A stretch of DNA of 61,824 nucleotides from Desulfobotulus pelophilus (GTDB taxonomy: Bacteria > Desulfobacterota > Desulfobacteria > Desulfobacterales > ASO4-4). Position numbers and translations under genes: made by a program. A model generated the notes under the pieces. It saw only the letters and a list, made by a program, of their open reading frames with translations, searched no databases and was not told the DNA's origin. The DNA lies in the NCBI RefSeq assembly GCF_026155325.1, contig NZ_JAPFPW010000019.1:1-61824 (forward strand), read 5' to 3'. Positions 9,697 through 22,600 of the stretch are shown piece after piece (the stretch's first letter is position 1; each line of letters begins with the position of its first letter).

Positions 9697-9727
9697 AAAC
9701 AAAAAGGGCCTGCCAAAGGCAAGCCCT
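9697..9727 (-). terminator. Riboswitch-controlled intrinsic terminator
   Basis: On the minus strand a 9-bp stem (GGGCTTGCC with GGCAGGCCC, one G-U pair) is followed by TTTTTGTTTTTG. It lies between the TPP aptamer and thiS, the position of an attenuator. The aptamer 3' flank contains GCAAG, which could pair with the CTTGC of the stem as an antiterminator when TPP is low; that pairing is inferred. Confidence 0.8.
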
Positions 9728-9776
9728 GAAGAGACCTTCTACCGGATGCATGTATATGGTGCACCCTTGCTCTTTT

Positions 9777-9867
9777 TCGCTTCCCTACGGCAGTATGAAC
9801 TGCTTCAGGTTCCAAGGGTCGGATCTTTTTATGATCCCTCTCAGCCTCTTTAAGGCTCCCCCAGCAA
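9777..9867 (-). promoter_or_regulatory. TPP riboswitch (thi box)
   Basis: The conserved thi-box segments occur in order on the minus strand: GGGGGAGCC, then GGCTGAGAGGG, then GACCCTTGGAACCTGA, then a CAGTTCATACTG arm and CCGTAGGGAAGC. P1 is closed by TTGCT with AGCGA. Binding of thiamin pyrophosphate would favour the downstream terminator at 9697-9727 and shut off thiS-G-H-F-E-C. Confidence 0.95.
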
Positions 9868-9886
9868 TCAAAATGTAACGGGTAGG

Positions 9887-9929: not shown

Positions 9930-9981
9930 AGTAAAAAAAACGGAACCTAAACCTATCCACTTCAGTTTTAGATTCCGTTAT
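9930..9981 (-). terminator. Intrinsic terminator after the 22-residue ORF
   Basis: On the minus strand a 13-bp stem (AACGGAATCTAAA with TTTAGGTTCCGTT, one G-U pair) is followed by a run of eight T. There is no U-run in the plus orientation. It begins 9 bases after the stop of the small ORF at 9990-10058 and also insulates the thi promoter from upstream transcription. Confidence 0.8.
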
Positions 9982-9989
9982 GATTATTT

Positions 9990-10058
9990 TCAGAAGTTAA
10001 AGTATCTTTCTATGAAATTATTGCGACCAAAAAAGCCTTTAAAAAGTTTCAGTATCAT
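9990..10058 (-). CDS. Possible 22-residue basic, phenylalanine-rich peptide
   Basis: An unusually well-signalled tiny ORF. ATG at 10058 is preceded, at 6 bases, by GAGGAG (10070-10065); the frame of 22 codons starts MILKLFKGFF and finishes IERYFNF before TGA; an intrinsic terminator starts 9 bases later. Six of 22 residues are Phe and the net charge is about +3, so an amphipathic, membrane-associating peptide is plausible. Promoter candidates on the minus strand are TTGACA (10156-10151) with ATGTTA after 17 bases, and a TATAAT at 10079-10074 that would start inside the ribosome site. It is divergent from rsmE. No function is known to me; the length alone makes chance occurrence possible. Confidence 0.5.
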   Translation of the reverse strand: MILKLFKGFFGRNNFIERYFNF

Positions 10059-10190
10059 TTTACTCTCCTCATCATTATATAGTCACTTTGACCCATTGTT
10101 TTTTGCATTGCACCAAAAACCTGACAGTAACATAACCTTTATTATGTTTGTGTCAACAAATATTTTTACAATTAACCAAAAAGGTGATCC

Positions 10191-10901
10191 TTGAATTTAC
10201 TTATTGTGCACCCCAACGACTTTATATCGGAAAATATGGTATCCATATCCGGTCCAAGGCTCCATCATATAAGAAACATATTGAAAACGGATATAGATCA
10301 AAGCCTTGCCATGGGTATTCTCAACGGTTCAATAGGTACGGGTATTCTGGCTAGCAGAAATGAAAGCAGGGATCTGTTTCAGGTACAGTTTTCAAGTCCG
10401 CCTCCACCGGCCTTAAACGTAACTCTTATCCTCGCCCTTCCTCGTCCCAAGGTATTCAGGCGCATTCTTCAATCCATTACCAGCCTTGGAGTGAAACACA
10501 TTATTCTTCTCCATGCCTTCAGGGTTGAAAAAAGTTACTGGCAAAGTCCGTTTCTGTCTGACACCTCTATTTTTACGCAATGCATCAAAGGTCTTGAACA
10601 GGCTAAGGACACAATGGTACCCTTTATTCAGATGGAAAAAAAATTCAAACCCTTTGTTGAAGATCAACTGCCCCTTCTTCTGAAAGATAAAAAAGGATAT
10701 ATTGCACACCCATATTGCGAATCCTCTTTTGGTAATCCTGAACCCCCTGCCGTTGTTGCCATTGGTCCTGAAGGTGGATTTATTCCCTACGAGGTCCAAT
10801 TACTGGAAAAAGCAGGTATGCAGTCCTTTTCCATGGGTGCACGTATCCTTACAACAGAAACAGCCGCATCCGTTCTTCTTTCACGATTTCTTCCTTTTTA
10901 A
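10191..10901 (+). CDS. rsmE: 16S rRNA m3U1498 methyltransferase RsmE
   Basis: A 236-residue SPOUT-class methyltransferase that methylates N3 of U1498 in 16S rRNA using SAM. The N-terminal PUA-like part (residues 1-70, with the RLHHIRNILK motif) and the C-terminal SPOUT knot (AIGPEGGF near 192-199, then LGARILxTETA-like GARILTTETAAS) are intact. The start is TTG at 10191 with AAGGTGAT upstream; the first ATG in frame would remove conserved sequence. Confidence 0.93.
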   Translation: MNLLIVHPNDFISENMVSISGPRLHHIRNILKTDIDQSLAMGILNGSIGTGILASRNESRDLFQVQFSSPPPPALNVTLILALPRPKVFRRILQSITSLGVKHIILLHAFRVEKSYWQSPFLSDTSIFTQCIKGLEQAKDTMVPFIQMEKKFKPFVEDQLPLLLKDKKGYIAHPYCESSFGNPEPPAVVAIGPEGGFIPYEVQLLEKAGMQSFSMGARILTTETAASVLLSRFLPF

Positions 10902-19230: not shown

Positions 19231-19683
19231 ATGAGTATACATACCTGTGTAAACCCCGGCAGAGGCGTTGATTCCATTCCCTTTGGTTCCGATGAAAAGT
19301 TTGTTGTAGCATCCTTGGGTTTGGCAGATTTTACTGATTTAATTAAAGAAAAAACTCTGGGAAGTACAAAGGTACTGTATTATTTTGATAGAGGAATTAC
19401 GTTTTATTTTGATGAAGAAGATGGGTACCGTCTTGGCTGTATAGAGGTGGAAGGTTTTTCTATTTTCATGTTTGATCAGAATGTAGCCCGTATTTCTAAG
19501 GAAGAACTGAAAAACGTGCTAAGGAAAAATGGAATTGAAGACTGGTATGAGGATAATGATGAAGAACAGGAAGCCCTTACGTCAGATTCTCTGGCGGCAA
19601 CTTTTTATTTTGAGTTTAACACCCTTATTTCTGTCCAGATAGGGGTGTGTACGGATCAGGAAGAAAATCCGATATGGCCGTAA
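19231..19683 (+). CDS. Uncharacterised 150-residue protein before the EndoQ-UvrD fusion
   Basis: I do not recognise the family. The product is acidic, soluble, with no signal peptide or membrane segment. It shows alternating strand-like blocks (KVLYYFDRGITFYFDEEDGYRLGCIEVEGFSIFMF), an acidic stretch near residues 110-120, and a final strand (FNTLISVQIGVCTD), suggesting a small alpha/beta fold. It ends 6 bases before the fusion helicase on the same strand, so the two are probably co-transcribed and may be functionally linked. It is divergent from the RdgC-like pair. Confidence 0.7.
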   Translation: MSIHTCVNPGRGVDSIPFGSDEKFVVASLGLADFTDLIKEKTLGSTKVLYYFDRGITFYFDEEDGYRLGCIEVEGFSIFMFDQNVARISKEELKNVLRKNGIEDWYEDNDEEQEALTSDSLAATFYFEFNTLISVQIGVCTDQEENPIWP

Positions 19684-19689
19684 GGGGAT

Positions 19690-22600
19690 GTGAAAATTAT
19701 GAAATTTATAGCAGATCTGCATATACATTCAAAATTTTCCATGGCAACGGCCTCCTCTCTGGATCTGGAGCACCTTTATATTTCCGCACAGGAAAAAGGT
19801 ATTTCGGTTATTGCCACCGGAGACTGTACCCACCCTGGCTGGTATGAAGAACTGAGTACTAAGCTTGTTCCGGCAGAATACGGGTTGTATGCCCTGAAGA
19901 ATGAAATAGCTTCTGACCTGGACTCTCTGGTTCCTCAAGGATGCAGGCGGGAAGTACGCTTTATGCTTTCTTCGGAAATCAGTTGTATTTACAAAAAGAA
20001 TGGCAAGGTAAGAAAAAACCATAACCTTGTTTATTTTCCAGACCTTGCGTCCGTAAAGAAATTCAATACCCGCCTGGGCCGTATGGGTAATATCGTTTCG
20101 GATGGCAGACCTATTTTGGGTTTGGACAGTCGTGATCTGTTAGAAATGGTATTGGAAACCCATACCCACGCTTTTCTTATTCCTGCCCACATATGGACTC
20201 CATGGTTTTCTCTTTTAGGATCCAAATCAGGTTTTAACCATATAACTGATTGTTTTGGTGATCTTACCCGTCATATTTTTGCTGTGGAAACAGGCCTTTC
20301 ATCAGATCCTGCCATGAACTGGCGGGTTTCTTTTCTTGATGATTTTTGCCTTGTATCAAACTCTGATGCCCATTCTCCGGGTAATCTGGGAAGGGAAGCC
20401 AATATACTGAATACGGATTTCGATTATATGGGTATTTACAATGCCCTTAAATATAAGGATCCGGAAATGTTTTTGGGAACATACGAATTTTATCCCGAAG
20501 AGGGTAAGTATCATCTGGATGGGCACAGAAAATGCGGTGTCCGTTTTTCTCCGGAGGAGTCCATGGGCCTTGGTGGTATCTGCCCTGTCTGTGGAAAACC
20601 TCTTACCCTTGGTGTTTTATATAGAGTGTGTGAGCTTGCGGACCGAAAAAATCCGGATACGAGCCGAAAAATACCTTTTCACAGTATTGTTCCTTTAAAA
20701 AATATTCTTTCGGAAATTCATGGGGTTGGACCTAAGACCAAAAAGGTTCAGGCAAGTTATGAACAAGTTTTAAAAAAATGTGGTTCAGAACTTTCCGTTC
20801 TTTGGGAAAAAGATAAGTATGAACTAAAAAGCCTGGGGATTCCTCTCCTCGATGAGGCAATTGTAAGAGTGAGGGAAAATCGTATTTTTCTTGAAGGAGG
20901 ATATGACGGTGATTACGGAAAGGTGAAAATCTTTTCCAGCGAAGAAAAAAATGATCTTCTTCCCCAAAAAAAATTTTTTCCCCTTCAGGAAGAAGCAAAG
21001 GGGGAACAGAAAAAAACTGAAAAATATACAAACCAAAAAATAAAAGGGCTTATAAAAGACTGTTCCCGGACCAGAAAGGAAGAAAAAGCCGTTTTACAGC
21101 TGAATGATGAACAGGAAGCAGCGGTGCATTACACCCATGGCCCTTCTTTGATCATTGCGGGACCCGGAACGGGTAAGACAAGAACCCTTACCTGTAAAAT
21201 AGCCAGGATGGCAAAAAAAGCTGACGTGAGTAAAGGGGTTGTTCTGGCCATAACCTTTACCCGAAAAGCTGCTGAAGAGATGAAGGAAAGACTGGATAAT
21301 CTTGGTGTAGACGAAGGCAACGTTCTGGTTCAGACCTTTCATGGTCTGGGGTATGAAATTCTTGAGGAATCAGGAGAACAAATTCAGCTTGCGGATCGGA
21401 ATGTATACGAATTTCTGATCAGACAGACTATCCGGAAAAGTGGGTTGAACATAAATGTTCATTCGGCAAAGCAAAGAATATCAGATGTAAAAAAAATGAT
21501 GTTCACAGGCGCGGTTCCAGACAATGAATCTTTTTTTCTGCTTACAAGCTATGAAAAGGAGATGAATGCTGCGGGAATGATGGATTTTGATGATCTGGTC
21601 ATAAAAAGTATTGAATGTTTAGAAAAGAAAAAGTCGTTTTATGAAAAATTCATAAAACGATTCACAGCTGTCTGTATAGATGAATATCAGGATCTTGATG
21701 CGGCCCAGTATCGTCTTGTTAAGCTGATGACAAAGGATATCAGTAAAATAACAGCCATAGGAGATCCCAATCAGTCCATTTACGGTTTCAGGGGTGGAGA
21801 CTCCTTTTATTTTGATCAGTTTCGGAAAGACTGGCCGGGCACGAAACTGTTCAGACTTACCCGTAACTATCGTTCATCAGAAAATATTCTCAGTACGGCA
21901 TGGAAGCTGATGGAAAGCAGTTCTGAAGACAGTTCTCTGAAGGTTATTTCTGGCATTCCAGGCAGACCGGTTGTTTTAAAAGTCTGTTCCGATGAAAAAA
22001 AAGAGGCGGAATGGATCGCAGATTGCATACAAAAAGGTATTGGTGGAACTGGTCACCATGCCATTTATGCGGGAATGGATGACCATGAAGGTGATCGTTT
22101 TGGTTTCTCTGATATAGCTGTTCTGGTGAGAACCCGAAAACAGATGGATATTATAGGGGATGTTTTTTTAAAAAAGGGAATTCCCTTCCAAACAGGATCA
22201 GAAAAATCTTTACAGGAAAATGCAGTTGTTAAAGAAATAATTGCCGCCTTCCGTATTCTTTCAGGTCAGGCGATGGTGTGGGATCTTTTTTCTTTTTCTT
22301 TTGGCATACCATGTAAAGAAAGCTGGATACAAAAACTGTGGGAAGAAAATCCTCTGCTGTCTTTTCATATGGAAAAAAAAGAAATGGGTTCATTAAACAA
22401 AAAAATAAGTGCTTTAACAAAGATGTACCATTCTTCCAGAGATAGTATTCAGCTTATGGAAGCTGTTCTCGACGAGGTGGATCCGGAGAAAAAGAAGAGA
22501 GATGATTTGTTTGTTGCTGCTTTGTTAAAGAAGGCGGAAAAGAAGGATCCGGCTGCATTTTTGAAAGAAATTTTTTTAGAAAAAGAGATTGATACGGTCA

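What the first reader, a model, noticed from the sequence alone, without database searches (positions are those of the whole stretch)
9930..10156. A possible unannotated 22-residue gene with its own ribosome site and terminator
On the minus strand between rsmE and the thi operon, GAGGAG, ATG, 22 codons, stop and a 13-bp terminator with eight T follow in exact order. The peptide is basic and rich in phenylalanine, as for membrane-active small proteins or type I toxins. The terminator has no other gene to serve, which is the strongest hint that a transcript exists.
Basis: partly seen in the sequence, partly recalled or inferred. Interest (0 to 1): 0.62.

Follow-up and report, generated by a model that had tools for sequence, protein, structure and literature searches.

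The report
Conserved 22-residue small protein gene
A tiny bacterial gene for a 22-amino-acid peptide appears to be real, because two related species keep a similar peptide and its ribosome site at the same spot while much of the surrounding DNA has changed; what the peptide does is not known.

Summary
The mini-gene (minus strand, 9990-10058, MILKLFKGFFGRNNFIERYFNF) is there as described: SD GAGGAG, ATG, 22 codons, TGA, and a 12-13 bp hairpin with a T-run. It is very probably protein-coding. Both other species held from its genus (Desulfobotulus; one is D. alkaliphilus ASO4-4) encode a full-length, ungapped homologue (12 of 22 residues identical) at the same place, divergent to rsmE. TTGACA, a 20-bp element at the expected RNA 5' end, the SD and a terminator hairpin are there too. 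Differences fall 8/2/12 on codon positions 1/2/3. The two congeners differ at 1 of 69 ORF bases, against 10 of 22 in part of the 5' UTR and 32 of 94 downstream. No homologue was found outside the genus.

The toxin reading is not supported: net charge is +3 here but -1 in congeners, no transmembrane segment is likely, amphipathicity is not above shuffles, and no antisense promoter was seen inside the ORF. It is not a leader of the thi operon, which lies on other contigs in congeners. Best reading: a genus-restricted, monocistronic gene for a small soluble or peripherally membrane-bound peptide with a conserved promoter-proximal element. Its function is inferred only.

The parts
10129..10156 (-). 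sigma-70-type promoter TTGACA-16-TATGTT of the small gene
   Evidence: TTGACA is in 3 of 3 species; 16-nt spacer to TATGTT, TAAATT or TAATTT read by eye. The segment as a whole is not well conserved: 14 and 17 of 33 positions differ between window and congeners
10099..10118 (-). conserved element TTTTGGTGCANNGCAAAAAA at the expected 5' end of the RNA (operator or 5'-UTR element)
   Evidence: invariant except NN in 3 of 3 species; the only mismatch-free copy in each genome; no stable RNA hairpin
10065..10070 (-). Shine-Dalgarno GAGGAG
   Evidence: AGGAG in 3 of 3 species
9990..10058 (-). 22-codon ORF, MILKLFKGFFGRNNFIERYFNF, stop TGA
9933..9979 (-). intrinsic terminator, 12-13 bp stem with T8
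   Evidence: sequence, fold z -3.77
10191..10901 (+). RsmE-family gene, divergent neighbour of the small gene in 3 of 3 species
9765..9872 (-). TPP riboswitch of the downstream thi operon; a separate unit, not part of the small gene

Best explanation
A real, monocistronic small-protein gene of the genus Desulfobotulus. Shown by sequence comparison: a conserved reading frame, TTGACA box, 5' element and SD, a strong terminator-like hairpin after the stop in each of three species, and a fixed place divergent to rsmE. Inferred: RNA polymerase with the housekeeping sigma factor starts near 10122 and makes an RNA of about 190 nt ending at the T-run near 9933. Its first ~25 nt carry the conserved element, most likely a DNA operator or a protein/sRNA-binding site that sets expression. 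Ribosomes translate the 22-residue peptide from the strong SD. The peptide, with conserved MI....KG...RN.FIE..FNF, is most likely a soluble or peripherally membrane-bound peptide that binds and modulates a larger partner, as many characterised bacterial small proteins do (recalled). Confidence in 'real translated gene' is about 0.9; in 'partner-binding modulator, not toxin' about 0.5. The score given is for the gene-level statement plus the broad mechanism.
For: Full-length homologues, 12 of 22 residues identical, in 2 of 2 congeners at the syntenic place. E 0.0138 and 0.0145 for one genome each, plus the syntenic location. Profile E 6e-14 to 2e-12, no second convincing copy (the three loci built the profile, so these E-values are circular). 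No gap in 69 nt; differences at codon positions 8/2/12; pS 0.74, pN 0.25; substitution score reached by 1 of 5000 column permutations. Between the congeners: 1 of 69 ORF bases, silent, vs 10 of 22 in the variable UTR and 32 of 94 plus 6 gapped positions downstream. TTGACA, element and SD kept. Hairpins after the stop: z -3.77 (window), -4.43 and -4.52 (D. alkaliphilus), -5.19 and -6.23 (G002). Neither the TPP riboswitch nor thi genes are next to it in congeners.
Against: Only three species, and two carry the same peptide, so there are effectively two independent sequences. If permutations that create stops are left out, the test is 1 of 185, so part of its strength is the open frame itself. 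Window against congeners, the ORF differs at 22 of 69 bases, while the 5' element differs at 2-3 of 25 plus 3 gapped positions, so the most conserved block is not the ORF. The promoter segment outside TTGACA is poorly conserved. No RNA, ribosome or mass-spectrometry data. No convincing homologue in 386 other genomes of the order. No partner, domain or fold supports any function.
Confidence: 0.6

Rival explanations
1. A regulatory small RNA (or dual-function RNA) in which the RNA, above all its conserved 5' element, is what matters, and the ORF is secondary.
For: Window against congeners, the 5' element is more conserved than the ORF (2-3 differences in 25 positions plus 3 gapped, against 22 in 69) and sits at the expected RNA 5' end; the unit is short and ends in a terminator.
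Against: The ORF evolves like a coding sequence (8/2/12; permutation 1 of 5000) and between the congeners it is the best kept block (1 of 69) with conservation falling off after TGA. The 199-nt RNA folds no better than shuffles (z 0.02) and the element makes no consistent hairpin. No Rfam family other than the separate TPP riboswitch reaches its gathering score.
Confidence: 0.15
2. A type I toxin: a small membrane-active peptide held silent by an antisense RNA.
For: Size, Phe content and positive charge of the window copy.
Against: Charge -1 in congeners; best 19-residue Kyte-Doolittle mean 0.06 (window) and 0.24 (congeners); helical moment within shuffles (0.19 and 0.34 of shuffles as high). 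No + strand promoter-like site inside the ORF. One convincing copy per genome.
Confidence: 0.1
3. A leader peptide and attenuator controlling the gene downstream (Phe codons, then a hairpin with T-run).
For: ORF directly followed by a terminator; 6 Phe codons in the window copy.
Against: The downstream thi operon has its own TPP riboswitch, and the TPP riboswitch is on other contigs in both congeners, where the next long ORF is convergent. Phe falls to 4 of 22. I did not search for an antiterminator structure.
Confidence: 0.03
4. A chance ORF between two regulatory regions.
For: 36 SD-preceded ORFs of 15-50 codons occur in window 1-23000, so one such ORF means little by itself.
Against: Full-length peptide kept at the syntenic place in 2 of 2 congeners, with coding-type substitutions.
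Confidence: 0.03

Closest known systems
Bacterial small proteins encoded by independent short ORFs (<50 aa), as found by ribosome profiling and conservation in E. coli (recalled as a class)
   Same: Short ORF with strong SD, own promoter and terminator, conserved among close relatives
   Different: No sequence or profile match over a cut-off to a described family; no partner known
Type I toxin peptides (listing and abstract starts seen: PMC6563280, PMC8309996)
   Same: Short peptide on a short mRNA
   Different: Not hydrophobic enough for a transmembrane helix, charge not conserved, no antisense promoter seen inside the ORF, one convincing copy per genome
Pfam DUF6648 (PF20353)
   Same: The congeners' peptide aligns end to end with model positions 19-40, E 0.018
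   Different: 15.4 bits against a cut-off of 27; 22 aa against a 182-position model; the window copy does not match; most likely chance
Amino-acid biosynthesis leader peptides with attenuators (recalled)
   Same: Short Phe-containing ORF, then a terminator
   Different: No conserved downstream gene; the neighbour is convergent in congeners

Membership tests
Small protein-coding gene (sORF) | Reading frame conserved across species with coding-type substitutions | tested here: met
   2 of 2 congeners, 8/2/12 by codon position, permutation 1 of 5000, or 1 of 185 among stop-free ones
Small protein-coding gene (sORF) | Ribosome binding site and start/stop kept | tested here: met
   AGGAG, ATG and TGA in 3 of 3 species
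Small protein-coding gene (sORF) | Transcript and translation observed | not testable with these tools
   No RNA-seq, Ribo-seq or proteomics at hand
Type I toxin-antitoxin | Hydrophobic, transmembrane-type peptide | tested here: not met
   Best 19-residue Kyte-Doolittle mean 0.06 and 0.24
Type I toxin-antitoxin | Antisense or trans small RNA antitoxin | tested here: inconclusive
   No + strand promoter-like site inside the ORF; the only one listed, 10121-10148, points to rsmE; a trans RNA cannot be excluded
Type I toxin-antitoxin | Growth arrest on overexpression | not testable with these tools
   Bench test
Leader peptide/attenuator | Same downstream operon in relatives | tested here: not met
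   TPP riboswitch on C5 (G001) and C33 (G002), the small gene on C4 and C14; no thi gene in the 20-kb stretches
Pfam DUF6648 | Score over the curated cut-off | tested here: not met
   15.4 bits against 27
Rfam RNA families | Score over gathering threshold within 9930-10156 | tested here: not met
   only the TPP aptamer at 9765-9872 passes

The most novel reading that the evidence does not exclude
A genus-specific peptide gene whose 20-bp promoter-proximal element, found without mismatch once per genome, forms a locus-specific control circuit, for example the peptide or a partner protein binding its own element to couple this gene with the divergent rsmE-hsp20-lon stress and ribosome-modification cluster.
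Probability: 0.1. Interest if true: 0.5.

Novelty: new member of a known kind. Interest (0 to 1): 0.33.

Why it matters
Genes of this length are often missed by annotation (recalled; whether this one is annotated was not checked). It was found by reading the sequence and then held up in comparison: at 22 codons it is near the lower limit of what conservation can show. It gives a well-bounded target in a sulfate-reducing genus. One knockout, tag or Ribo-seq track would settle expression, and the single-copy 5' element gives a handle on its regulation. If the function remains unknown it is one more orphan small protein, hence the moderate score.

Tried and rejected
Tried: direct DNA homology: 2 of 58 genomes matched, the window's own and a 28-base piece in G033, so the conservation is not visible to plain DNA search. 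Peptide search: 13 of 58 genomes at E<=10, 14 rows; the 11 rows other than the three syntenic ones were read one by one, and none has both an aligned start codon and an aligned stop. Profile search in 389 order genomes: 25 genomes at E<=0.1, 22 of them outside the genus. The best of these, G170, E 0.0058, is about what 386 genomes give by chance, and it has no SD or aligned ATG (read). The other weak rows were not read. Genome-contig scan by peptide: 138 stretches matched, none confirmed; it also missed the D. alkaliphilus copy that one search then found, so it is a weak negative. Scan by pattern TTGGTGCANNGCAAAA...GGAG...ATG: 25 stretches; only L076 (D. alkaliphilus) continues into the peptide. 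Phages: no match.

Upstream of four rsmE orthologues outside the genus (G048, G053, G019, G036; 39-45% identical), the first ~700 nt showed no similar ORF (SD-preceded ORFs listed, the rest by eye).

Rejected: an N-terminal extension. The frame is open upstream in congeners (70 residues) but the window has an in-frame TGA; the 5' element also reads SG(W)FWCxAK in the ORF frame, but its codons hardly vary at third positions, so the constraint looks to be on DNA/RNA. UTR lengths from TCAGG to ATG of 66, 66 and 69 nt are all multiples of three; I take this as chance. Selenocysteine at that TGA was considered and dropped by eye, without a test.

Rejected: a hairpin made by the 5' element (z 0.04, 0.18, 0.58 and three different folds). 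Rejected: a second conserved sORF at 19529-19642 (noted as possible); it is another frame of a longer conserved coding stretch that I had not masked. The first alignment was spoiled by one locus in the wrong orientation and was replaced. A first fold of the G002 3' side (z -1.95) was cut inside the hairpin; the whole stretch was folded later.

Papers: only search listings and abstract starts were seen; none was opened. Nothing listed there was about this gene; no wider claim of absence is made.

Full report
WHAT IS THERE. On the minus strand between the RsmE-family gene (10191-10901, +) and the TPP riboswitch of the thi operon (9765-9872, -) lie, in order: a promoter-like TTGACA-16-TATGTT (10156-10129), TTTTGGTGCAATGCAAAAAA (10118-10099), SD GAGGAG (10070-10065), ATG (10058), 22 codons, TGA (9992-9990), and a 12-13 bp hairpin with eight T (9979-9933). 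The terminator folds at -16.2 kcal/mol, better than all 200 shuffles.

WHERE IT COMES FROM. The window is G000:C19. Its genus mate G001 carries the gene on contig C4 of 205,226 bases; the pattern scan found the same stretch in Desulfobotulus alkaliphilus ASO4-4, contig NZ_VLLC01000003.1 of 205,226 bases (sequence agreement). So the window is a species of Desulfobotulus; which one was not determined. G002 is unnamed.

IS IT CONSERVED. A 22-aa query is near the limit of search, yet the protein search over 58 genomes put full-length 1-22 matches at E 0.0138 and 0.0145 in 2 of 2 congeners. Both lie immediately divergent to the rsmE orthologue (61-62% identical). Both read MIINFLKGIITRNEFIEEHFNF against MILKLFKGFFGRNNFIERYFNF. 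DNA search alone finds neither. In the 20-kb syntenic stretches the ungapped score is 66 and 66; 100 shuffles of the peptide scored at most 45 on the D. alkaliphilus stretch. Of 36 SD-preceded ORFs of 15-50 codons in window 1-23000, five were scored as lying outside the long ORFs I had listed. This one was best; three were nested starts of one frame that proved to overlap a conserved coding stretch I had not masked, and one scored no better than its shuffles.

IS IT CODING. Window against D. alkaliphilus: 69 aligned bases, no gap, 22 differences, by codon position 8/2/12; the same counts against G002. pS is 0.74 and pN 0.25. Shuffling the alignment columns reached the observed amino-acid similarity in 1 of 5000 cases, or 1 of the 185 that made no stop codon. 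Between the two congeners the ORF has one silent difference in 69, while the variable part of the UTR has 10 in 22 (plus 3 gapped positions) and the 3' side 32 in 94 (plus 6 gapped). Upstream, conservation comes in blocks: the SD, the 20-bp element, and TTGACA. The rest of the promoter segment is poorly kept: 14 and 17 of 33 positions differ between window and congeners. The limit is that G001 and G002 have identical peptides, so there are two independent sequences, not three.

THE UNIT. TTGACA is in 3 of 3, with a 16-nt spacer to TATGTT, TAAATT and TAATTT (read by eye). The expected RNA starts at about 10122, so the conserved element sits at its 5' end. Each genome has exactly one copy without mismatch; further copies at two mismatches (5 over the three genomes) compare with 3 matches of the reversed control pattern, so no regulon is visible. 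The element forms no consistent hairpin. After the stop each species has a different strong hairpin followed by T-rich sequence: z -3.77 in the window, -4.52 in D. alkaliphilus and -6.23 in G002. In the congeners it stands between the small gene and a convergent 248-codon ORF and may serve both.

WHAT IT IS NOT. It is not a good type I toxin: charge +3 here but -1 in congeners, no transmembrane-like stretch, helical moment within shuffles. No Pfam, NCBIfam, PHROGs or PADLOC family passes a cut-off and no PDB sequence is close (best E 0.81); the one weak Pfam match, DUF6648, is far under its cut-off.

RANGE. No convincing homologue was found outside the genus: 389 genomes of the order, the three known loci included; the genome-contig collection by two scans; phages. 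The scan missed even the D. alkaliphilus copy, and needs an exact pattern, so both would miss diverged copies of so short a gene: 'genus-restricted' means 'not found elsewhere by these'.

MECHANISM. Shown by comparison: a conserved, selected reading frame with a conserved SD, 5' element and TTGACA box, and a terminator hairpin. Inferred: transcription from about 10122 to 9933, control through the 20-bp element, translation to a 22-residue peptide, and action through a partner protein as a soluble or peripheral peptide. The last step rests only on the class behaviour of small proteins (recalled) and on the lack of toxin features; I hold it at about 0.5, and the existence of the gene at about 0.9.

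VERDICT. It is a new, orphan member of a known kind, the conserved bacterial small proteins.

Noticed in passing
window 9705-9872, minus strand: TPP riboswitch aptamer (76.1 bits) followed by a strong terminator-like hairpin (9727-9705) before thiS: an ordinary riboswitch with what looks like its expression platform.
   Followed up: partly
window 19468-19683, plus strand: A 71-codon ORF (MFDQNVARISKEELKN...PIWP) before the long ORF at 19690 looks conserved in both congeners by eye; an out-of-frame sORF inside it mimics conservation.
   Followed up: partly
L020 (G048), divergent strand upstream of rsmE: In another family of the order a rsmE orthologue also has a TPP-riboswitch-like sequence on the divergent strand about 640 nt away, with an HU-like gene between (read by eye, not scanned), so a rsmE-thi neighbourhood may be old and lost in the two congeners.
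   Followed up: no
L097 8953-9699 and L096 9924-10670: A 248-codon TTG-start ORF with an N-terminal hydrophobic stretch is convergent to the small gene in both congeners; the L097 copy has no Pfam match at E<=1.
   Followed up: partly
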